This document shows positions 23,112 through 45,096 of a stretch of DNA of 64,000 nucleotides, piece after piece (position 1 is the first letter of the stretch; every line of letters starts with the position of its first letter). Under the pieces are notes generated by a model. That model was not told the origin of the DNA. It saw nothing but the letters and a program-made list of their open reading frames with translations, and made no database searches. The stretch comes from Amycolatopsis balhimycina FH 1894 (GTDB lineage: Bacteria > Actinomycetota > Actinomycetes > Mycobacteriales > Pseudonocardiaceae): positions 6,010,822 through 6,074,821 of the forward strand of contig NZ_KB913037.1 of the NCBI RefSeq assembly GCF_000384295.1, read 5' to 3'. The position numbers and the translations under genes were made by a program.

Positions 23112-23127
23112 TCGAACACGAGTTCGA
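23112..23127 (+). promoter_or_regulatory. LexA (SOS) box
   Basis: TCGAACACGAGTTCGA matches exactly the actinobacterial/Gram-positive LexA operator TCGAAC-N4-GTTCGA. It ends 17 bp before the GTG of the small Cys-rich gene at 23145, so it would cover that gene's core promoter. Confidence 0.85.
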
Positions 23128-23144: not shown

Positions 23145-23570
23145 GTGGACGCGGTGCTGTTTGGGCTCCTGGCCGAAGGGGTACAGAAATACCTGCGAGG
23201 AGTCCTGGAGTCGACGGTTCCGGATCGGGGTCGGGAGCCTTCGGGGGCTTCAGGAATTCCTTCGCGTGCGGGAGCGGAGGCGTGCCGGCTGGCCGCCGCC
23301 TGGCGCGCGCTGCTCAGGCAGCACGAGCTCGGTACGGACGGGCAATGCGTCACCTGTTGGCGCTGTTCCTGTAGGCGCTGTGATTCCTGCGGCCGGGGAC
23401 GCCGCTGGACGACCAGGGCTCGGAATGCCGCGCGTGTCCGCTCCGCGGGGGGCGCAGGGGGACCTGTGCCCTGGGGTTGGCTGCCGGTGCGCAGGCCCGC
23501 GGGGCTGTGCCCGGTGTGGCAGGTCGCGGTGGCGTACTTCATCCGGCGCCTGCCGGGCGGGCAGCGGTAG
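23145..23570 (+). CDS. Cys-rich small protein, predicted SOS-regulated
   Basis: The 141-residue frame starts with GTG behind GAGGGGG. It begins MDAVLFGLLAEGVQKYLRG, has a helical segment RLAAAWRALLRQHEL, then a cysteine-rich patch (QCVTCWRCSCRRCDSCGRG) and ends with CPVWQVAVAYFIRRLPGG. The CxxC pairs plus the late Cys-Pro-Val-Trp suggest a zinc-binding or redox fold; I recall similar LRQHE...CPVW small proteins in Amycolatopsis but no function. A perfect LexA box directly upstream predicts DNA-damage induction. Codon use in the middle (Arg/Gly-rich) is less protein-like than at both ends. It sits right after uvrD. Confidence 0.6.
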   Translation: MDAVLFGLLAEGVQKYLRGVLESTVPDRGREPSGASGIPSRAGAEACRLAAAWRALLRQHELGTDGQCVTCWRCSCRRCDSCGRGRRWTTRARNAARVRSAGGAGGPVPWGWLPVRRPAGLCPVWQVAVAYFIRRLPGGQR

Positions 23571-35475: not shown

Positions 35476-36230
35476 GCCGGCGCGGGCAGCGCCTTGCAGA
35501 GCGCGACCGGGAACTTCTTTTCGGCCGCCTGGATCTCGGCGCACCCGGCCGACTTGACCTGCGCGAACGCCGTCCAGCCGCCGTCGCTCCAGCGGAAAAC
35601 CGAGCGGGACGGCGGTTCGGTCTGGCGCATCAGCAGGTCGAGGACCAGCCAGCCGGGGTCGCAGACGCGGGTGGTGCCCGTGCTTTCGGCACCCACGGCG
35701 GACACCGCCGCGCCGATCCACGCCGGGTCGCAGTGGTCGGCGGGCGGGGCGCAGGTGCCCTGGCGGTCGCAGTGGCCCCAGCCGGCGCCGAGCTTGTGCC
35801 AGGCGTTCGCGGCGTCGGCGTTGAGGATCACGGTCCGGTCCGCGACCGGGTCCGACGTGCTCAGCCGCAGCTCCGCGGGCACCTTGTCCTGGCAGCCGCC
35901 CGCGGCGGGCCGGGTCGAGTAGACGACGTCGGCGCGGATGTCGGTCTTCGCCTCGACGAGCTGCTCGATCCGTGGCTCCCGGACGCAGCCGGGGTCCTTG
36001 CCGGGCAGGGCGACCTCCACGAACAGGCTGTTCAGGTCCGGGCCCGGGCGGATCCCGGTGACGTCGGCGCGGAACGAGCGCCACTCCGCGCCGATGGTCG
36101 TCGGCGCCGGGGCGGCGGCCGTGGCGCCGGGCACGCCACCGCCGGCGGTCAGCACGACGGCGAGCACCGCTCCCGCCGCGACGAGGGCGCCGGCGATCCA
36201 CAGGATCGGCCGGCTCCGCTGTTCGGTCAT
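35472..36230 (-). CDS. Cys-rich membrane-anchored exported protein
   Basis: From ATG 36230 (MTEQRSRPILW) the protein has 252 residues: a short basic N terminus, one helix (AGALVAAGAVLAVVLTAGG) and an exported domain with eight cysteines (for example PGCVREP, AGGCQDK, GHCDRQGTCAPPADHCDP, RVCDPGW), which fits several disulphides outside the cell. I recognise no family. Convergent with the PGYPP-repeat gene and in line with the GNAT gene upstream (43 bp). Confidence 0.75.
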   Translation of the reverse strand: MTEQRSRPILWIAGALVAAGAVLAVVLTAGGGVPGATAAAPAPTTIGAEWRSFRADVTGIRPGPDLNSLFVEVALPGKDPGCVREPRIEQLVEAKTDIRADVVYSTRPAAGGCQDKVPAELRLSTSDPVADRTVILNADAANAWHKLGAGWGHCDRQGTCAPPADHCDPAWIGAAVSAVGAESTGTTRVCDPGWLVLDLLMRQTEPPSRSVFRWSDGGWTAFAQVKSAGCAEIQAAEKKFPVALCKALPAPA

Positions 36231-36273
36231 CGCCACCCCCAAGTCCACCGGCAATCTAGCCGACGCCGCAGCG

Positions 36274-36822
36274 TCAGCCGGGCGGCCCGGATTTCTCGCG
36301 CAGCGTGACGTCCTTGTCCAGGGGCACCGCTTTCTCCAGGTGCACCGCGCCGCGGATGTGGCCGCCGGTCGCGGGGGCGTGGGTGAGCCGGTAGCCGGCC
36401 CGCTGGTACAGCGCGATGTTGCGGGCGCTGCGGGACCCGGTGAACAGGGTGAACCGGCGGGCTTCGGCGGGTGCCGGCGCTTCGGCGTGCGCGAGCAGCC
36501 GCCGGCCCAGCCCGCGCCCGGCGAGGTCCGGCGCGACCATCAGCCTGCCGAGCTCCCAGCGGTCGCCGTCCAGCCGGGCGCGCACCGCGCCGACGAGCCG
36601 GTGGTCGTGCCGCAGGACCCACACCGACCACGTCTTCACCCAGTCGCGCACGTCCTCGAGCGTTTCGTGCAGGGCGGGGACGTCGAGGGTGTCGTTGAGG
36701 ACGGCCTCCTCGACCCAGCAACAGCGTTGCAGGACCAGCAGTTCCGGGCAGTCTCCGGGCCGGGCTTCGGTGAGCTCCACGCCGGTGTGTCTATCGACCG
36801 GCCCGGGCGACGGCAACTTCAT
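36274..36822 (-). CDS. GNAT-family N-acetyltransferase
   Basis: The 182-residue protein starts at ATG 36822 (MKLPSPGPVDRH). The acetyl-CoA binding motif is LMVAPDLAGRGLGRRLLAHAE and the C-terminal SRSARNIALYQRAGYR is typical of the fold. The substrate is unknown. It is divergent from the imuA' operon, so its promoter region borders the LexA box but does not contain it at a position clearly suited to control it. Confidence 0.9.
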   Translation of the reverse strand: MKLPSPGPVDRHTGVELTEARPGDCPELLVLQRCCWVEEAVLNDTLDVPALHETLEDVRDWVKTWSVWVLRHDHRLVGAVRARLDGDRWELGRLMVAPDLAGRGLGRRLLAHAEAPAPAEARRFTLFTGSRSARNIALYQRAGYRLTHAPATGGHIRGAVHLEKAVPLDKDVTLREKSGPPG

Positions 36823-36959
36823 TACGGTGGCGGGGTGACCGGCTTGCCTTGCTGCGCCTGGGTTCGCTCCCCTGCCGCAAGGCTGGGCGCGGCCGGCTTT
36901 CCGGGCCGCAGACCCCACTACCGGGTGACTTGACACTCCGAGCGGTTCACGGTTGACTG

Positions 36960-36989
36960 TTCCTTGTCGAACAAGTGTTCGACAAGGAA
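36960..36989 (+). promoter_or_regulatory. LexA (SOS) box of the mutasome operon, 30-bp perfect palindrome
   Basis: TCGAACAAGTGTTCGA at 36967-36982 matches the LexA consensus exactly. The symmetry extends to 13-bp perfect arms (36960-36972 and 36977-36989) around AAGT. It is about 95 bp before the chosen imuA' start and would govern imuA', imuB, the 178-aa gene and dnaE2. Confidence 0.92.
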
Positions 36990-37082
36990 CCGCCGCCTTC
37001 CCCGCGGCGAACCAGCGCCGTCGGTCGCGTTTTTGGGAGAGGCTCGACCGCCGGCCTTGTCCGTGGTGGGGAGGTGCGTGCG

Positions 37083-37823
37083 GTGACCGCTGTGGCGGCC
37101 GCTTTGACAGAGCCGCCGGTGGCCCGGCTGGCGGCCCTGCCCGGGGTCAGCACGGCGAGCCGGGTGGCGGCCCAGGCCGAGCGGGCCCGGGCGACGGGAA
37201 GGGTGCTCCCGGTCGCCCCGGCGCTGGCCGGGCTGCTGCCCGCCGCCGGGCTCCGGCGCGGGAGCACGGTGGCGGTCCACGGGGGGACGTCGCTGCTGCT
37301 CGCGCTGCTCGCCGAGGCCACCGCCACGGGGTCGTGGGCGGCGGTGGTCGGCATGCCGTCACTGGGGCTGGCGGCCGCGGCCGAGTACGGCGTGGACCTC
37401 ACCAGGGTGGCGCTGGTGCCGCGGCCGGGCGCGGAGCTCCCGGCGGTGGTCGCGGCGTTGCTCGACGGCGTGGACCTGGTGGCGGTCCACTCGGAGACGG
37501 TGCACGCCACACTGCAGCCGGCGGTGGCGCGGCGGCTGTCCGCACGGGCCCGCCACCGTGGCGCGGTATTGCTGGCATTCGGCGCCTGGCCGGGCGCGGA
37601 CGTCGAGCTGTCGTGCCGCCGCGAGTCGTGGTCGGGTCCCGAGGGCGGCTCGGGTCCCAACATAGGCTACGGCCACCTCCGGGAGCGCCGGGCCCTGGTC
37701 CGCGCCCGAGGCCGCGGCGCGGCGGCCCGTCCGGTCACGGCGGAGCTCTCCCTCCCGGCCGCGGACGGCTCGGTGACCCAAGCGGTCCCGCGCCTCCAGC
37801 TCCACGAGGAGGCCACGGCATGA
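37083..37823 (+). CDS. imuA': ImuA'-like SOS mutagenesis protein
   Basis: The 246-residue protein begins at GTG 37083, supported by GGGGAGG 8 nt upstream; the frame is open back to 36975, inside the LexA box, so that part cannot be used. It is a RecA-like protein in outline: the region LLPAAGLRRGSTVAVHGGTSLLLALLAEA (about residues 41-70) resembles a Walker-A area without a canonical GKT, and AAVVGMPSLGLAAAAEYGVDLTRVALV follows. The fold matches mycobacterial ImuA' (Rv3395c), which recruits ImuB and DnaE2 for error-prone synthesis after damage. Identification relies strongly on its LexA box and position before imuB. Confidence 0.85.
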   Translation: MTAVAAALTEPPVARLAALPGVSTASRVAAQAERARATGRVLPVAPALAGLLPAAGLRRGSTVAVHGGTSLLLALLAEATATGSWAAVVGMPSLGLAAAAEYGVDLTRVALVPRPGAELPAVVAALLDGVDLVAVHSETVHATLQPAVARRLSARARHRGAVLLAFGAWPGADVELSCRRESWSGPEGGSGPNIGYGHLRERRALVRARGRGAAARPVTAELSLPAADGSVTQAVPRLQLHEEATA

Positions 37824-37889
37824 CGCCCCAGTTTCGTCCAAACAGGACAGTCACCGCTTCCCGCCACTGCGGCCTGACGCCGTGTCGTC

Positions 37890-37997
37890 CCCCCAATCAC
37901 GCGTGTCGGCTCTCCAATCACACGAGTCGACGGTCTGATCACGCGAGTTCGCTTCCGGGGTGCGCGATCCGGCGGTCCGAGTGCGCGAGCCGACCGT
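37890..37997 (+). repeat. Degenerate 21-22-bp tandem repeats between imuA' and imuB
   Basis: About five units follow the pattern (A/G)RTSACGCGAGTCGRCSGTC with a period of 21-22 bp, for example AATCACGCGTGTCGGCTCT, AATCACACGAGTCGACGGT, GATCACGCGAGTTCGCTT and AGTGCGCGAGCCGACCGTC. Divergence between units increases to the right. Mycobacterial imuA' and imuB abut, so this 244-bp spacer is extra. It contains no supported gene. Confidence 0.6.
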
Positions 37998-38067
37998 CTG
38001 GGTGCGGCCGCGGTTCACTCCGTCACCGCAGCACTGGCTGCGTTCGGGGCCGGCTCCGGGAGGCCAC

Positions 38068-39675
38068 ATGACCGTCCCGGCTCAACGCGCCGCCGCCGAC
38101 ACCCCCACCCGGATGCTGGTCCTGTGGTGCCCCGACTGGCCCGTCGTCGCGGCCGCGGCTGCCGGTGGGGCACCCGCGACCCAGCCCGCCGCTGTCTTCA
38201 GCGCCAACCGGGTCGTTGCCTCGAACGCCGTCGCGCGGCGGGGTGGGGTCCGGCGGGGGATGCGGCGGCGGGAGGCGCAGTCGAACTGTCCGGAACTGGC
38301 CGTCTTCAGCGCGGACGACGGCCGGGACGCGCGGCTCTTCGAAGCCGTCGCGCGGGCCGTCGAGGCGCTCGTTGTCGGCGTCGAGGTCGTTCGGCCGGGC
38401 TTGGTGGCGGTGCCCGTCGCGGGCGCCGCGGGCTACTTCGGTGGTGAACACGCGCTGGTCGAGCGGCTCGTCGACGAGGTGTCCGCCGCGGCCGGCGTCG
38501 AGAGTCAAGCGGGTGTCGCCGAGGGGCTGTTCGCCGCGACGCTCGCCGCCCGGCGGGGCACGTTCGTCGACCCCGGGTGCGTTGCCGAGTTCCTCGCGCC
38601 GTTGCCCGTCACCGAGCTCGACCAGCCCGGTAGCGACCGTGCGGAACTGGCCGACCTGTTGCGCCGCCTCGGTTTGAAGACGCTCGGTGCGTTCGCCGCC
38701 CTCTCGGAGCGCGACGTCGCCAACCGGTTCGGCACGGCCGGGGTGCTCGCTCACCGGCTGGCGCGCGGACATTCCGAACGGCCGCCGCTGCGCCGCCGGC
38801 CGCCGCCGGAGCTGACTCTGGCCGAGGAGTTCGACCCGGTCGTCGAGCGGGTCGACGTCGCCGCGTTCCTCGCCAAGGGCCTCGCGACGCGGTTCTGCGC
38901 CGGTCTCGCCGGGCACGGCCTGGCCTGCACCCGGCTCGGCATCTACGCGGTCACCGAAGAAGGCGAACACCTCGGCCGGGTGTGGCGGTGCGCGGAACCG
39001 CTGACCCCCGCCGGCGTCGCCGACCGCGTGCGCTGGCAGTTCGAGGGCTGGCTGCGCGCCGCGCCGGGGCAGCGCCCGACGTCCGGCGTGGTGCGGCTGC
39101 GGCTGGAGCCCGAGGAACTCGTCGAAGGCCGGTCACTGCAGCTCGACCTGTGGCAGAACGGCGGTTCCGACGAAGCCGACGAACGCGCGGCTCGCGCGTT
39201 CGTCCGGGTCCAGGGCCTGCTCGGCCCCGAAGGCGTGGTGACGCCGGTGCTCGAGGGCGGCCGCGACCCGGCGGGCCGCGTCCGGCTGGTGGCCTGGGGC
39301 GACCCGCGCGAGCGGACGACGCCACCGGACGCGACCTGGCCGGGACGGCTGCCGGCCCCGTCCCCGGCGACGGTGCTCGATCGGCCGGTGCCCGCCCAGG
39401 TCTTCGACGCCGAGGGCCGGCCCGTCGGGATCACCGGCCGCGACCAGGTCACCGCGCCCCCGCACCGGCTGAGCATCGCCGGCGGGCCGCGCCGGGACAT
39501 CGTCGCCTGGGCGGGCCCCTGGCCGACGGCGGCCGGCCGCCGTCGCCCGGGCCCACGGCGCGCACGGTTGCAGCTGGTGCTGGCGGCGGAGGAAGGCGAG
39601 CCACCCGAGGCGGTGCTGGCGTACTGCGCGGGCACGGAAAATCCACTGTGGACGGTCGAGGGAGTGTACGACTGA
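38068..39675 (+). CDS. imuB: ImuB, catalytically inactive Y-family polymerase homologue
   Basis: From ATG 38068, with GGGAGG upstream, the protein has 535 residues. The Y-family fold is visible (RMLVLWCPDWPV at the start, AVFSANRVVASNAVARRGGVRRGM, a helix-hairpin-helix LLRRLGLKTLGAFAAL), but the metal-binding acidic residues of active polymerases are absent, as in other ImuB proteins. The beta-clamp motif QLDLW is at residues 358-362, close to the QLPLW position in mycobacterial ImuB. ImuB tethers ImuA' and DnaE2 to the sliding clamp. The gene lies in the LexA-controlled operon. Confidence 0.95.
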   Translation: MTVPAQRAAADTPTRMLVLWCPDWPVVAAAAAGGAPATQPAAVFSANRVVASNAVARRGGVRRGMRRREAQSNCPELAVFSADDGRDARLFEAVARAVEALVVGVEVVRPGLVAVPVAGAAGYFGGEHALVERLVDEVSAAAGVESQAGVAEGLFAATLAARRGTFVDPGCVAEFLAPLPVTELDQPGSDRAELADLLRRLGLKTLGAFAALSERDVANRFGTAGVLAHRLARGHSERPPLRRRPPPELTLAEEFDPVVERVDVAAFLAKGLATRFCAGLAGHGLACTRLGIYAVTEEGEHLGRVWRCAEPLTPAGVADRVRWQFEGWLRAAPGQRPTSGVVRLRLEPEELVEGRSLQLDLWQNGGSDEADERAARAFVRVQGLLGPEGVVTPVLEGGRDPAGRVRLVAWGDPRERTTPPDATWPGRLPAPSPATVLDRPVPAQVFDAEGRPVGITGRDQVTAPPHRLSIAGGPRRDIVAWAGPWPTAAGRRRPGPRRARLQLVLAAEEGEPPEAVLAYCAGTENPLWTVEGVYD

Positions 39676-39677
39676 GC

Positions 39678-40214
39678 ATGGACGAGGACTACGCACGGAA
39701 GCTGCGAAACTGGCTGCGCGCCGAACCGGGGGCAACACCTCGCCGGCCCGCGGAGGAGCGCGAGTGGCTACGGGAAATTCCGGAGCCCGGCTCCGCCGCG
39801 GACGAACGGGAACGGCCGCCCGGCCGGCAGCTCCCGGGAACCGAGCTTGCTGCCGATGCCGGCCGGCCAGTCGACCGGCGGATTTCCGAGCCCGGCTCGG
39901 ACGGAACCTGGTCGGTCCGCGGGCAACTGCCTGCCGCACACCCCGCCACCGACGAAGAGTGGATCTGCCCGGTGATCGCTCTTCCGGTCCCACGCTCCTC
40001 CCGGGAAAACGGCTGCCGCATGAGCGAGGCCGAAGCCAGCAGCCGGCGGAACCACCCGACGAACCGGGCCCGCCGCGAAGAACCGACAGACGCGCCCGAT
40101 CGTCGCCCGATGAGCGAAGCCGAGGCTCGCAGCCGCTGGAACCACCCGACGAACTGGCACCGCCGCCGCCGCGAAGCCGGCCAGCCGCAGCGAGACAACC
40201 CCGGGAGCCGGTGA
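39678..40214 (+). CDS. 178-aa hypothetical protein embedded between imuB and dnaE2
   Basis: ATG 39678 is two bases after the imuB stop, and the TGA at 40212-40214 directly precedes the dnaE2 ATG, so the gene is tightly packed in the SOS operon. The protein is hydrophilic, rich in Arg, Glu and Pro, with no membrane segment. It starts MDEDYARKLRNWLRAEPG, has two EPGS motifs and ends in two 30-residue repeats, MSEAEASSRRNHPTN (from residue 115) and MSEAEARSRWNHPTN (from residue 145). I know no homologue and M. tuberculosis has no equivalent beside dnaE2. A mutasome accessory role is inferred from context only. Confidence 0.75.
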   Translation: MDEDYARKLRNWLRAEPGATPRRPAEEREWLREIPEPGSAADERERPPGRQLPGTELAADAGRPVDRRISEPGSDGTWSVRGQLPAAHPATDEEWICPVIALPVPRSSRENGCRMSEAEASSRRNHPTNRARREEPTDAPDRRPMSEAEARSRWNHPTNWHRRRREAGQPQRDNPGSR

Positions 40215-43200
40215 ATGGGCTGGAACAACCCACCCGTCCGGTGGAAGGATCTCGCCCGCACCCTGGCCGGTGGCGTCGGTCTCCCGCCCGGCGATCACGG
40301 TGACAGTCCCGCCTGGGGCCGTCACCGCGAGGGCTACCGGCGGCCCGATGACCTCCCCGCGCGCAGCACCGACGACGGCGGCGAAGCCGTCCGCGTGCCC
40401 TACGCCGAGCTGCACTGCCACTCCAACTTCAGTTTCCTCGACGGTGCCAGCCATCCCGAGGAGCTCGTCGAAGAGGCCGCGCGCCTCGAGCTGGACGCCA
40501 TCGCCCTCACCGACCACGACGGCATGTACGGCGTCGTGCGCTTCGCCGAGGCAGCCCGGGAACTGGGCGTCAACACCGTGTTCGGCACCGAACTCAGCTT
40601 CGGGCTCCCCGGCCCGCAGAACGGCGTCGCCGACCCCGAAGGCGAACACCTCCTCCTGCTGGCCCGCGGCGACCAGGGCTACCGGGCCCTCTGCCGCGCC
40701 ATCACCGCCGGCCAGATCCACGAGCGGGCCGAGAAGGGGAAACCGACCTACGACCTCGGTGCGGTCGCCGAGGAGGTCGCCGGGCAGTGCGTGGTGCTGA
40801 CCGGGTGCCGCAAAGGCGCGGTGCGCTCGGCGCTCGTCACGCACGGCCCGGCGGCGGCCGCCGACAAGCTGAAAGAACTCGTCGACCGGTTCGGCCACGA
40901 CAACGTCTACGTCGAGCTCACCGACCACCGCCAGCCGCTCGACAGCACCCACAACGACCTCCTCACGCGACTCGCCGAGGACCTGAAGCTGCCGACCGTC
41001 GCCACCACCGCCGCGCACTACGCCCGGCCCGAACGCGCCCCGCTGGCCGACGCGCTCGCCGCCATCCGGGCGCGCCGCGGTATCGACGAACTCGAAGGCT
41101 GGCTCCCCGCCGCCGGGACGGCGTTCCTGCGCAGCGGCGCCGAAATGGACGTCCTGTTCCGGCGCTATCCCGGCGCGGTCCGCCGCGCCGCACTCCTGGG
41201 CATGGAATGCGCGTTCCCGCTCAAGCTGATCGCCCCGAAGCTGCCGCCCTTCGACGTCCGCGATGGCCACACCGAGACGACCTACCTGCGCCATCTAACA
41301 AAAGAAGGTGCGAAGGAGCGGTTCGGCGGCAAAGAGCACGAGGAGAAAGCCAAGGCACAGATCGAGCACGAACTGGCCATCATCGAGGAACTCGGCTTCC
41401 CCGGGTACTTCCTGATCGTCTGGGACATCGTGCGGTTCTGCAACGAAAACAAGATCCTCTGCCAGGGCCGCGGCTCGGCCGCGAACTCGGCCGTCTGCTA
41501 CGCCCTCGGCATCACGAAGGTCGACTCGGTGGCCAACAAGCTGCTCTTCGAACGCTTCCTCGCCCCCGACCGCGACGGCTATCCCGACATCGACCTCGAC
41601 ATCGAGTCCGACCGCCGCGAGGAGGCCATCCAGTACGTCTTCGAGAAACACGGCCGCCTGCGCACCGCCCAGGTCGCGAACGTGATCACCTACCGCGCCC
41701 GGTCCGCCGTCCGCGACGCCGCGAGAGCGCTGGGCTACTCACCGGGCCAGCAGGACGCCTGGAGCAAGCAGATCGACCGCTGGGGCTCGTTGCGCAGCAC
41801 GGAAAAAGACCACGACCACGACATCCCGGACGACGTCGTCCAGCTCGCCTTCGCGCTCGAGGACTTCCCACGGCACCTCGGCATCCACTCCGGCGGGATG
41901 GTCATGTGCCACGAGCCGGTGAGCCAGGTCGTGCCGGTCGAGTGGGCGCGGATGGCGAACCGCAGCGTGATCCAGTGGGAGAAGGAGGACTGCGCCGCCG
42001 CCGGGCTCGTCAAGTTCGACCTGCTCGGGCTCGGCATGCTCTCGGCGCTGCACTACATGCTCGACCTCGTCGAGGAGTACAAGGGCGAGAAGGTCGACCT
42101 CGCCGAGCTGGACCTCACCGACGGCAACATCTACGACATGCTGTGCCGCGCCGACGCGATCGGCGTGTTCCAGGTGGAGAGCCGGGCGCAGCTGGCCACG
42201 CTGCCCCGCCTCAAACCCACGACGTTCTACGACCTCGCCGTCGAGGTCGCGCTGATCCGGCCCGGCCCGATCCAGGGCGGCTCGGTGCACCCGTACATCC
42301 GCCGCAAGCAGGGGATCGAGGAGTGGGACTTCGACCACCCGCTGCTGGCGACGGCCCTGGGAAAGACCCTCGGCGTGCCGCTGTTCCAAGAGCAGATGAT
42401 GCAGATCGCGCTGGACGTCGCGAACTTCACCGCGGCCGAAGCCGACCAGTTGCGGCACGCGATGGGCTCCAAACGGTCCGACCGGAAGATGGACCGGCTG
42501 CGGCAGCGGTTCCTCGACGGCGCCGTCGCGAACGGCGTCGACGACGAACTCGCGCAGAAGATCTTCCTGAAACTCAAGGCCTTCGCGAACTTCGGCTTTC
42601 CCGAGAGCCACGCGCTGAGCTTCGCGCACCTGGTCTTTTCCAGTGCCTACTTCAAGTTCTACCACCCGGACGCGTTCCTGGCGGGCCTGCTGCGCGCGCA
42701 GCCGATGGGGTTCTACTCACCGCAGTCGCTGGTCGCCGACGCGCGGCGCCACGGCGTCACCGTGCACGGCCCGGACATCAACCGCAGCCTGCCGCACGCC
42801 ACCCTGGAACCGGGCACCGGGAAGTTCCACGACGTGCGCACTGGGCTGAGCACCGTGCGCAAGATCGGGGAAGACGTCGCGGAGCGGATCGTGGCCGAGC
42901 GAACCGGGCACGGCCACTACACCGACATGGCCGACGTCGCCCGCCGCGTGCGGCTGACGACCCCGCAGATCGAAGCCCTGGCCACGGCCGGTGCGTTCGC
43001 CGGCTTCGGCGGCGACCGCCGCCAGGCGCTGTGGACCGCGGGCGCGGTCGCCGGGGAACGCCCGGAGAAGCTGCCCGGCCTGGTCGGCGCGCCGGCGCCG
43101 GTGCTGCCCGGGATGGACGGCCTCGACGTCGCGGCCGCGGACGTCTGGGCGACGGGCGTGTCGCCGGGCAGCTACCCGACCGAGTTCATCCGCGACCGCC

Positions 43201-43526
43201 TCGACGAGCTCGGCGTCGTCACGGCGAACCGCCTGGCCGCCCTGGACGACGGCGCGCGCGTGCTGATCGGCGGCGCCGTCACGCACCGGCAGCGCCCCGC
43301 CACCGCCGGCGGGGTCACCTTCCTCAACATCGAGGACGAGACGGGGATGGTCAACGTGATCTGCACGCTCGGCCTGTGGCAGCGCTACCACCGCGTCGCG
43401 CGCGCCAGCCCGGCGTTGCTGATCCGCGGGGTGGTGGAGAAGGCCGACGGCGTCGTCAGCGTCCTCGCCGACCGCGTCGAGGCACTGCCGATGCGGATCA
43501 AGGCGAAGTCGCGGGACTTCCGGTGA
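40215..43526 (+). CDS. dnaE2: Error-prone DNA polymerase III alpha subunit DnaE2
   Basis: The 1103-residue C-family polymerase begins MGWNNPPVRW, like mycobacterial DnaE2. The PHP domain is at about 60-300 (YAELHCHSNFSFLDGASHPEE, ALTDHDGMYG). The polymerase core has ILCQGRGSAANSAVCYALG and the catalytic aspartates in PDIDLDIESD; KFDLLGLGMLSALH and PGPIQGGSVHPYIRRK follow. A C-terminal OB domain is seen in GVTFLNIEDETGMVNVICT. It carries out damage-induced mutagenic synthesis with ImuA' and ImuB. It belongs to the operon behind the LexA box at 36960; no second box is visible directly before it. Confidence 0.97.
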   Translation: MGWNNPPVRWKDLARTLAGGVGLPPGDHGDSPAWGRHREGYRRPDDLPARSTDDGGEAVRVPYAELHCHSNFSFLDGASHPEELVEEAARLELDAIALTDHDGMYGVVRFAEAARELGVNTVFGTELSFGLPGPQNGVADPEGEHLLLLARGDQGYRALCRAITAGQIHERAEKGKPTYDLGAVAEEVAGQCVVLTGCRKGAVRSALVTHGPAAAADKLKELVDRFGHDNVYVELTDHRQPLDSTHNDLLTRLAEDLKLPTVATTAAHYARPERAPLADALAAIRARRGIDELEGWLPAAGTAFLRSGAEMDVLFRRYPGAVRRAALLGMECAFPLKLIAPKLPPFDVRDGHTETTYLRHLTKEGAKERFGGKEHEEKAKAQIEHELAIIEELGFPGYFLIVWDIVRFCNENKILCQGRGSAANSAVCYALGITKVDSVANKLLFERFLAPDRDGYPDIDLDIESDRREEAIQYVFEKHGRLRTAQVANVITYRARSAVRDAARALGYSPGQQDAWSKQIDRWGSLRSTEKDHDHDIPDDVVQLAFALEDFPRHLGIHSGGMVMCHEPVSQVVPVEWARMANRSVIQWEKEDCAAAGLVKFDLLGLGMLSALHYMLDLVEEYKGEKVDLAELDLTDGNIYDMLCRADAIGVFQVESRAQLATLPRLKPTTFYDLAVEVALIRPGPIQGGSVHPYIRRKQGIEEWDFDHPLLATALGKTLGVPLFQEQMMQIALDVANFTAAEADQLRHAMGSKRSDRKMDRLRQRFLDGAVANGVDDELAQKIFLKLKAFANFGFPESHALSFAHLVFSSAYFKFYHPDAFLAGLLRAQPMGFYSPQSLVADARRHGVTVHGPDINRSLPHATLEPGTGKFHDVRTGLSTVRKIGEDVAERIVAERTGHGHYTDMADVARRVRLTTPQIEALATAGAFAGFGGDRRQALWTAGAVAGERPEKLPGLVGAPAPVLPGMDGLDVAAADVWATGVSPGSYPTEFIRDRLDELGVVTANRLAALDDGARVLIGGAVTHRQRPATAGGVTFLNIEDETGMVNVICTLGLWQRYHRVARASPALLIRGVVEKADGVVSVLADRVEALPMRIKAKSRDFR

Positions 43527-43527
43527 C

Positions 43528-44250
43528 TCAGGGCCGCCGGACGATCGTGATGATCTCCGGGCTGGTCTCCGTCACCGGGCCGCGGTCCCAGTAGCCGTAC
43601 TGCTCGTCGACCACCAGCCCGGCTTCCGCGACGAACTCGCCCAGCGACGCGACGTCGAGGAACCGCAAGGTGGTCTCGCTGAACTGGGGTGCGTCCCAGC
43701 TCGGGCTCTCGTACGTCGTCTTGAAAGTGACGTACCCATCCTCGAACGCCCCGGCGTCGTTCCACGACCGGACCTCCCCGGCTTCCCAGACGTTCGAAGG
43801 CGTCCAGCGCTCCCAGGCGCGGGCCGCGGGGTTGCGCGTGTCGAAGCCGAACCGGCCACCGGGACGCAATGCGCGACGGATCGCCGCGAAGGCCGTGCGC
43901 AGTTCGTCGTCGGTGAGCAGCACCTGGAACGCGTGCCCGGTCATCACGGCGAAGTCGAACTCGCCGTCCCAGGCCGCGGTCGACAAATCCCCGTGCACCC
44001 ACTCGATGTCGTCGCGACGGCGGGCCTGGGCGAGCATGCCTGCCGCCGGGTCGATGCCGGCGAGCCGTCCGGCGTGGCCGGACTCGCGCGCCCAGTGCAG
44101 CAGCGATCCGGTGCCGCAGCCGACGTCAAGGACGGACTCGGCGGCCATGATCATGGGGAGGTAGAACTCGTAGTCGCCGCCGCTCTCCCGCGGGTTGAAG
44201 GCGTCGTACAGCGAGGCGAGCTCGTGGTCGGCATACGCGTGGTCGGGCAT
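43528..44250 (-). CDS. Class I SAM-dependent methyltransferase
   Basis: The 240-residue protein has the motif I loop VLDVGCGTGSLLHWA, motif II GIDPAAGMLAQARRR, then VHGDLSTAAWDGEFDFAVMTG and RALRPGGRFGFDTRN. The substrate is not evident. It is convergent with dnaE2, with one base between the stop codons. Confidence 0.9.
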   Translation of the reverse strand: MPDHAYADHELASLYDAFNPRESGGDYEFYLPMIMAAESVLDVGCGTGSLLHWARESGHAGRLAGIDPAAGMLAQARRRDDIEWVHGDLSTAAWDGEFDFAVMTGHAFQVLLTDDELRTAFAAIRRALRPGGRFGFDTRNPAARAWERWTPSNVWEAGEVRSWNDAGAFEDGYVTFKTTYESPSWDAPQFSETTLRFLDVASLGEFVAEAGLVVDEQYGYWDRGPVTETSPEIITIVRRP

Positions 44251-44325
44251 TCCGTCACCGTAATGATCTCCACGCGAGGCCTCATCCGGTTTTCGCGGCG
44301 GCCAGGATCTGACCTATTATCGGTC

Positions 44326-44484
44326 ATCGGCCGGGACACCGCCGGCCGGGTGCGCGACCCGTTCGGCAACCTCTGGTGGATCCAGACCCGGCTGGAGAAC
44401 CTGGACGAAGCCGAGATGACGCGTCGCGCGCAGCTGCCCGAGTACGTCGAGGCGATGAACTACGTCCAGGGCGCGAAGCTCTAG
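44326..44484 (+). pseudogene. Remnant of a VOC (glyoxalase/bleomycin-resistance-like) protein
   Basis: The reading frame ending at 44484 encodes GRVRDPFGNLWWIQTRLEN followed by MTRRAQLPEYVEAMNYVQ, which is the C-terminal end typical of PhnB-like VOC proteins. Upstream of about 44326 the frame becomes unrelated sequence and the beta-alpha-beta-beta-beta modules with metal ligands are missing. It is therefore a 3' fragment of a lost gene. No start or ribosome site is present. Confidence 0.65.
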
Positions 44485-44508
44485 TCGCAGGTGTGGCACC
44501 CTGGGGCC

Positions 44509-45096
44509 GTGCTGGAGACCGGGGAGGACTACCGCGAAGCGGTGTTGTCCGGGCAGTGGTGGGAAAAGCGCCGGTTCACCGGCTGCGACTTCACCGGAGC
44601 GGACCTGAGCGGGCTGCGGACGCGCGGCTGCACCTTCGACGACTGCGTGTTCGGCCGGGCCGACCTGTCGCGCTCGCGGCACGACGCGTCGGCGTTCCGC
44701 TCGTGCACCTTCGACCGGACGGTGCTGGTGGAAAGCCGCTGGACGGCGTGTTCGCTGCTGGGCTCGTCGTTCACCGACAGCGGGTTCGGCGGGATCGCGC
44801 TCACCGAGTGCGATCTCTCCCTGGCGTCGCTGGCGAAGGCGCGGCTGCGCCGGCTGGGGCTGTCGGGCCTGCGGCTGCGGGAAGCCAACCTGACCGAAGC
44901 CGACCTCACCGGCGCCGACCTGCGCGGCAGCGACCTGACCGGCGCCCGCCTGCAGGGCGCGAAGTTCGAGGGCGCCGACCTGCGCGGCGCGCGTCTCGAC
45001 GCGAACGCCCTGGTCCAGGCCGACCTGCGGGGTGCCGAGGTCGACGTCGAGACGGCGATCGCCTTCGCCGCCGCCCACGGCCTCGTCATCCGCTGA
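44509..45096 (+). CDS. Pentapeptide-repeat protein
   Basis: The 195-residue protein starts with GTG 44509 (VLETGEDYREAVLSG). From residue ~30 it is built of A(D/N)LXX-type units: CDFTGADLSGLRTRGCTFDD and, near the end, ANLTEADLTGADLRGSDLTG with ARLQGAKFEGADLRGARL. This forms a right-handed square beta helix. MfpA/Qnr relatives imitate DNA and protect gyrase from quinolones, but many pentapeptide proteins have no known role; the resemblance is at fold level only. Confidence 0.9.
   Translation: MLETGEDYREAVLSGQWWEKRRFTGCDFTGADLSGLRTRGCTFDDCVFGRADLSRSRHDASAFRSCTFDRTVLVESRWTACSLLGSSFTDSGFGGIALTECDLSLASLAKARLRRLGLSGLRLREANLTEADLTGADLRGSDLTGARLQGAKFEGADLRGARLDANALVQADLRGAEVDVETAIAFAAAHGLVIR

What the first reader, a model, noticed from the sequence alone, without database searches (positions are those of the whole stretch)
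39678..40214. Unknown 178-aa gene embedded in the SOS mutasome operon between imuB and dnaE2
The gene begins 2 nt after the imuB stop and ends one codon before the dnaE2 ATG, so all three are translated together under LexA control. It is absent from the familiar mycobacterial cassette and carries a 30-residue duplication (MSEAEA...NHPTN). The last repeat and the dnaE2 start share a similar GCTGGAAC-rich DNA stretch, so the gene may have grown from the dnaE2 5' end. It could be a new mutasome component.
Basis: partly seen in the sequence, partly recalled or inferred. Interest (0 to 1): 0.72.

Follow-up and report, generated by a model that had tools for sequence, protein, structure and literature searches.

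The report
Unannotated peptide gene inside mutasome operon
Between two genes of a DNA-damage-induced, error-prone DNA-copying machine, many bacteria of one actinobacterial family carry a tiny, unnamed protein gene with a conserved ten-residue motif; in this genome's group the protein has grown several-fold, and it may be an overlooked part or regulator of the machine.

Summary
The ORF is real: 178 aa at 39678-40214, 2 nt after the imuB stop, its TGA directly followed by the dnaE2 ATG, in a cassette with a perfect SOS box at 36967-36982. It is not an isolated oddity. Of 68 imuB-dnaE2 gaps of 6-1000 nt (67 loci plus the window), 66 hold an ORF starting near the imuB stop; 64 of the 66 carry a core [ILVM]PxPR (consensus LIPxPRRSPEN; shuffles: mean 1.9, maximum 6), the other two a PxQR variant. 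Lengths run from 24 aa (Lentzea) to 270 aa (294 aa among database homologues). Codons vary while residues hold (dN/dS 0.18-0.32 in conserved blocks). It was found in one family-level group and in 0 of 25 sampled loci elsewhere in the order; an ImuB tree fits one gain and about five losses. The window's protein is the enlarged form: its tail, with a constrained terminal repeat, was gained once in the A. mediterranei clade. Growth from the dnaE2 5' end is not supported: that similarity is at chance level. Best reading: a disordered adaptor or regulator peptide of the mutasome. Main rival: a translation-coupling ORF, favoured by its absence from all eight loci with imuB and dnaE2 split. Function is untested.

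The parts
36967..36982 (+). SOS (LexA) box, perfect match to TCGAACNNNNGTTCGA
   Evidence: in relatives a box (at most 1 mismatch of 12) lies within 500 nt upstream of the imuA' match in 60 of 68 loci tested, the window not among them
37083..37823 (+). imuA' (start codon not resolved; GTG 37083 used)
   Evidence: NF058630 ImuA', E 4.2e-53
38068..39675 (+). imuB
   Evidence: Pfam IMS PF00817 E 1e-12; orthologues
39658..39664 (+). GAGGGAG, Shine-Dalgarno-like stretch for the slot gene inside the imuB end
   Evidence: sequence
39678..40214 (+). slot gene, 178 aa (P0001): enlarged member of the Pseudonocardiaceae imuB-dnaE2 slot peptide family
39678..39791 (+). conserved N-terminal block (MDEDYARKLRNWLRAEP...REIPEPG)
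   Evidence: start pattern in 88 of 88 homologues; dN/dS 0.18 among 10 sequences
39948..40025 (+). core block TDEEWICPVIALPVPRSSRENGCRMS; the family motif LPVPRSSREN is at 39981-40010
   Evidence: 87 of 88 homologues; equivalent LIPxPRRSPEN in short slot peptides; dN/dS 0.32
40015..40076 (+). inner repeat copy
   Evidence: 82% identical to the second copy
40105..40166 (+). terminal repeat copy, constrained tail (MSEAEARSRWNHPTNWHRR)
40203..40207 (+). GGGAG, likely ribosome-binding site of dnaE2 inside the slot gene's last codons
   Evidence: sequence
40215..43526 (+). dnaE2
   Evidence: NF004225 error-prone DNA polymerase, 1478.6 bits

Best explanation
The gene is the enlarged A. mediterranei-clade form of a lineage-specific, SOS-regulated slot peptide of the ImuA'-ImuB-DnaE2 cassette. 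Shown: a conserved coding gene, in the same slot, with a variable linker rich in disorder-promoting residues, a core motif [LIV]PxPR-x-[S/A/P]-x-[E/D], and here a tail whose terminal repeat is under selection. Inferred: it is translated by coupling to imuB, so it is made together with the mutasome, and its short linear motifs bind ImuB and/or DnaE2 (or ImuA' or the clamp), acting as an adaptor, chaperone or regulator that helps assemble or tune the error-prone polymerase. The tail adds a second binding element.
For: Position: 64 of 66 nearest-start slot ORFs, chosen without motif information, carry the core, against a mean of 1.9 and a maximum of 6 for residue shuffles (200 sets). By fixed frame the core occurs in 59, 1 and 5 of 68 slots forward and 1, 2 and 0 reverse; five of the six in the second and third forward frames are again the slot ORF itself. 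The core Arg is written with five codons (CGC 26, AGA 18, CGG 10, AGG 6, CGA 4), and the acidic position, not used to pick the motif, is E/D in 63 of 64. dN/dS is 0.18 for the 50-63-aa form in 9 loci and 0.18 / 0.32 / 0.25 for the N / core / tail blocks of the long form, against 0.41 over all its columns and 0.69 for the last residues. The frame is kept to the dnaE2 start in all 10 tailed members despite lengths of 147-270 aa. The terminal repeat keeps both Trp in 80 of 87 proteins, inner copies in 2 of 83. SOS box upstream of the cassette in 60 of 68 loci tested. The tail is one clade, support 100.
Against: No binding or phenotype evidence. Eight of 74 adjacent cassettes lack it (6 with no room, L038, L039), and so do two further f1 loci, L112 and L146 (no ORF of 25 aa or more), so it is not essential to every mutasome of this type. 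All 6 split cassettes lack it, one of them in this same genome, and so do L053 and L080, which a pure protein-subunit role does not predict. No convincing partner signal: the only conserved column that changes in three of four losing lineages is ImuB Pro314, and 37 of 200 mock sets do as well. The complex could not be modelled.
Confidence: 0.5

Rival explanations
1. Translation relay: the ORF mainly carries ribosomes from the imuB stop to the dnaE2 start and sets DnaE2 dosage; the peptide itself matters little.
For: Start overlaps or nearly abuts the imuB stop (offset -1 in 40 of 66, +2 in 20 of 66); the end lies within 6 nt of the dnaE2 start in 58 of 66; only 35 of 66 have an SD-like sequence just before dnaE2. 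It is absent from 6 of 6 split cassettes and from L053 and L080.
Against: Residues are conserved through codon change; in six no-room loci imuB couples directly to dnaE2 by TGATG, so no relay is needed; in L061, L100 and L101 the ORF ends 467-900 nt before dnaE2 yet keeps the core or, in L101, a PxQR form; growth to 294 aa is not explained.
Confidence: 0.25
2. A brake: the peptide inhibits or destabilises the mutasome (for example competes for an ImuB or DnaE2 surface) to limit mutagenesis.
For: Same genetic evidence as the adaptor; repeated losses with the cassette kept fit a dispensable modulator.
Against: No direct evidence for the sign of an effect.
Confidence: 0.15
3. The gene grew out of a duplicated dnaE2 5' end.
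For: 13 of 16 nt and WNHP/WNNP similarity in the same codon phase.
Against: Chance level in shuffles (86 of 300 DNA; 354 of 1000 protein; 111 of 2000 tail only; 502 of 1000 by profile); a shorter orthologue without the tail surrounds the tailed clade on the trees.
Confidence: 0.03
4. Chance ORF in high-GC DNA.
For: This DNA gives many long ORFs (39 of at least 100 aa overlapping 36000-45000).
Against: Conservation, dN/dS, frame retention and motif tests.
Confidence: 0.01

Closest known systems
ImuA'-ImuB-DnaE2 cassette (mycobacterial / actinobacterial mutasome)
   Same: Same operon type, SOS box, ImuA' (NF058630), ImuB and DnaE2
   Different: An additional gene between imuB and dnaE2, not mentioned in the passages seen of PMC12926913, PMC11791113, PMC6511836, PMC3765255 and PMC10421592
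Small accessory subunits of Y-family mutasomes: YolD/YqjX, UmuD', stand-alone ImuB-C
   Same: Small protein encoded beside an error-prone polymerase; YqjX-type subunits can be linked only by an unstructured N-terminal arm (PMC12926913, passages)
   Different: No Pfam match for P0001 at E up to 1; most members are too short to hold an SH3-like or ImuB-C barrel
Translationally coupled leader / relay ORFs (recalled kind)
   Same: Overlapping or abutting stop and start codons on both sides
   Different: Amino-acid sequence is under purifying selection

Membership tests
ImuA'-ImuB-DnaE2 cassette, extra gene | lies between imuB and dnaE2, same strand, near-zero spacing | tested here: met
ImuA'-ImuB-DnaE2 cassette, extra gene | SOS box in front of the cassette | tested here: met
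   60 of 68 relatives tested
ImuA'-ImuB-DnaE2 cassette, extra gene | required for induced mutagenesis | not testable with these tools
   needs deletion mutants
Pseudonocardiaceae slot peptide family (defined here) | core [ILVM]P-x-[P/Q]-R followed by an acidic residue | tested here: met
   LPVPRSSREN
YolD / UmuD-like small subunit | sequence match to a curated family | tested here: not met
   P0001: 0 Pfam and 0 NCBIfam families at E up to 1; 31 short members at E up to 0.1: only Prok-E2_A (2 members, best 0.044) and DUF4096 (1 member, 0.057) in Pfam, none in NCBIfam
Stand-alone ImuB-C | about 80-residue domain with a conserved C-terminal Trp (PMC3765255, passages) | tested here: not met
   many members of 24-60 aa are too short; no family hit; fold itself not modelled
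Translation relay ORF | no selection on the peptide | tested here: not met
   dN/dS 0.18-0.32 in blocks
Translation relay ORF | couples imuB to dnaE2 translation | not testable with these tools
   layout fits; needs reporter assays

The most novel reading that the evidence does not exclude
A fourth dedicated subunit of the actinobacterial DnaE2 mutasome: a peptide as short as 24 residues whose LIPxPRRSPEN motif docks on ImuB/DnaE2 and sets mutasome assembly or activity, and which one clade has enlarged with repeat-built, multivalent tails.
Probability: 0.3. Interest if true: 0.78.

Novelty: new variant of a known kind. Interest (0 to 1): 0.6.

Why it matters
How ImuB and DnaE2 are held together and brought to the clamp is an open question for a machine that drives induced mutagenesis. 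A family-wide, in-operon peptide with a ten-residue conserved motif gives a concrete handle: a minimal natural ligand or regulator that can be deleted, point-mutated and pulled down. It also shows how a micro-ORF can persist as a gene and then grow by tail gain and repeat duplication, with only the last repeat copy kept under constraint.

Tried and rejected
Origin from dnaE2: BLOSUM62, DNA-window and profile tests were at chance. RNA or Shine-Dalgarno explanation of the core: rejected, because the core lies 47-155 residues before the end in the 10 tailed members and its Arg and Pro codons vary; in short forms, by contrast, the E-N codons can overlap an SD-like stretch, and the final PGS(R/H) residues of the long form overlap the likely dnaE2 SD and evolve with little constraint. 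Curated families and solved structures: nothing for P0001 in Pfam or NCBIfam; the short-form profile's only PDB match has E 0.49. Partner clues from co-varying residues: ImuB Pro314 (62 of 65 carriers) differs in three of four losing lineages, but 37 of 200 mock sets give as many such columns; none in ImuA' or DnaE2. A first joint alignment (A3) was discarded because slot-only rows looked misplaced. Literature: six searches listed no paper that by title or abstract start treats this gene; PMC4176160, the only paper with imuB, dnaE2 and Amycolatopsis, names Amycolatopsis for a DinB homologue (passages).

Rows dropped before counts: one search used 76 of 81 sequences (L008, L027, L060, L062, L071 lacked a usable imuB or dnaE2 match; L060 was later seen to hold a slot ORF). 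The 80 loci are the best of 324, so they lean to close relatives. The match list was capped, and the 60 stretches were picked from it by hand. Eleven of the 31 f1 loci repeat records, judged by equal contig length. One search left out 12 rows set by hand as repeats or near-repeats (one, L086, is a different record with the same peptide as L016) and kept two identical rows (L097, L074); its labels were partly set by hand and count PxQR forms as slot.

Full report
What is there. The ORF 39678-40214 encodes 178 aa, starts 2 nt after the imuB stop, and its TGA is followed at once by the dnaE2 ATG, in the same frame. The cassette is imuA' (NF058630), imuB, this gene and dnaE2 (NF004225), behind a perfect SOS box at 36967-36982 (consensus recalled). 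P0001 has no Pfam or NCBIfam match at E up to 1. It holds two 62-nt repeats, 82% identical, 90 nt apart.

Homologues. A search of about 5.8 billion proteins gave 88 proteins at E up to 0.01, the query included. Those whose source names an organism are Amycolatopsis, except one labelled Streptomyces; product names say hypothetical or uncharacterized, except one labelled DnaA (P0086). They are 102-294 aa long. The N-terminal pattern is present in 88 of 88, the core in 87 of 88, the tail pattern in 81 of 88; copies of the repeat motif run from 0 to 4. The last repeat copy keeps both Trp residues in 80 of 87 proteins; inner copies do in 2 of 83. So the terminal copy is the constrained one and inner copies look like decaying duplicates.

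The same slot in relatives. The 80 best of 324 DnaE2 loci, plus the window, gave 76 sequences with usable imuB and dnaE2 ends. In 6 the imuB stop overlaps the dnaE2 start, in 2 (L053, L080) the genes lie over 3 kb apart, and 68 have gaps of 6-1000 nt. In 66 of these 68 there is an ORF of at least 15 aa near the imuB stop that ends by dnaE2; choosing the one with the nearest start, 64 of 66 carry [ILVM]PxPR and 62 the fuller motif, against a mean of 1.9 (maximum 6 of 66) in 200 sets of residue shuffles. The two others have LIPAQRVPQEN (L025) and LIPSQRLSAEN (L044). Two gaps have no ORF (L038, L039). The family thus runs from 24 aa in Lentzea (MQDEYWDLLETLIPLPRKAPEQGI) over 50 aa in A. orientalis to the long forms here. 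A profile search with 31 short members returned 114 proteins at E up to 10 (best 2.3e-6), among them 'hypothetical proteins' named from Amycolatopsis, Prauserella, Actinophytocola, Labedaea, Actinokineospora and Lentzea; their genome position was not checked.

Protein-level selection. In 64 loci the core Arg uses five codons and the acidic position is E/D in 63. dN/dS is 0.18 among nine short forms of the orientalis clade, and 0.18, 0.32 and 0.25 for the N, core and tail blocks of ten long forms, against 0.41 over all columns and 0.69 for the last residues; the three-sequence rubida set gives 0.59 on few changes. The last residues overlap the likely dnaE2 ribosome-binding site.

Distribution and history. 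In the window's own family-level group f1, of 31 first-copy loci 22 hold a core ORF, 3 a PxQR form (L101, L106, L107), 1 an ORF without core (L112), 1 no ORF, and 4 no imuB within 1.6 kb. Eleven of these 31 repeat records; of the 20 others, 12 have the core, 3 the PxQR form, 1 an ORF without core and 4 no imuB nearby. Of four second-copy loci one (L116) has the core and three have no imuB within 1.6 kb. In 25 loci of other families none has the core: 9 have no imuB nearby, 4 no room, 7 room but no ORF, 5 an ORF without core. On a DnaE2 tree of 80 rows the tailed form is one clade (support 100) nested among short forms, and absence needs 4 changes. On an ImuB tree of 109 rows, presence against absence needs 6 changes, in keeping with one gain inside the family and about five losses (FastTree, several long branches, basal forks weak).

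The awkward result. Six cassettes in which 1.8-5.3 kb separate imuB and dnaE2 have no slot peptide: no coding-strand ORF of 25 aa or more with the core, save three weak matches in unrelated ORFs of the 5.3-kb spacer of L147. L053 and L080 also lack it. One of the six is a second imuA'-imuB-dnaE2 cassette in this very genome; on the ImuB tree it and its counterpart L149 fall, with starred support (96), inside a set of 66 rows of which 56 bear the slot gene, though their exact place is open. Adjacent cassettes can lack it too: 8 of 74, and L112 and L146. So the peptide goes with adjacency of the two genes but is not demanded by it. This favours a role tied to coupled translation, or to co-assembly of freshly made ImuB and DnaE2, over a subunit needed by any such polymerase.

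How it most likely works. Shown: conserved coding sequence, tight coupling layout, SOS box, composition rich in disorder-promoting residues (0.69 of P0001). Inferred: the peptide is made with ImuB and DnaE2 and binds one or both through its LIPxPR motif, as adaptor, assembly aid or regulator. DnaE2's own N-terminal arm, with its conserved GWNNPPxxW, is predicted disordered when alone, as one would expect of a partner-binding arm. Residue covariation with loss gave no usable partner signal. I put 0.5 on the adaptor or regulator reading, 0.25 on a mainly translational relay and 0.15 on a brake.

What is known. In the passages I saw, PMC12926913 describes DnaE2 modules and PolY-associated small subunits, PMC11791113 the RecA-NT motif of ImuB, PMC6511836 mutasome variants, PMC3765255 ImuB-C and SRAP, and PMC10421592 the mycobacterial mutasome, whose text has no occurrence of Amycolatopsis or Pseudonocardia; none of these passages mentions this gene. 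Six searches listed none on it. It is a new variant of a known cassette; the peptide family appears undescribed within these searches.

Noticed in passing
window 23112-23127 and 23145-23570: A second perfect SOS box (TCGAACACGAGTTCGA) lies about 85 nt after what reads as the end of a UvrD/PcrA-type helicase gene (recalled from the sequence, not scanned) and just before a 141-aa GTG ORF rich in Cys and Arg with no Pfam match: a candidate further SOS gene.
   Followed up: partly
L142 (G000:C1:3258500-3267500): The window's genome has a second imuA'-imuB-dnaE2 cassette (ImuB 62-64% identical) with an SOS-like box (1 mismatch) and a 1.8-kb insert holding a 409-aa ORF between imuB and dnaE2, and no slot peptide. 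G117 has a similar one with a 2.6-kb gap (L149).
   Followed up: partly
L058, L061 and P0116, P0136, P0148, P0154, P0157, P0165, P0171, P0190: Actinophytocola-type slot peptides carry an extra N-terminal Cys module, about CPECR...GSCRQFVIGHPNPVCVAGYP (shorter in L058), that looks like a possible metal site.
   Followed up: no
L048, L013, L002: The linker before the core has grown by Pro-rich tandem repeats in separate lineages (for example RPVQSDSASP in L048, EPGARAAHDRLP in L002).
   Followed up: no
L143, L144, L147: Where dnaE2 is split from imuB, dnaE2 has its own SOS box about 30 nt before the start.
   Followed up: no
window 40212-40217 and L001-L007, L012, L077: In all 10 tailed loci the slot stop is followed directly by the in-frame dnaE2 ATG, so one stop codon separates them; L012 uses a stop other than TGA, which argues against a conserved TGA readthrough.
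   Followed up: partly
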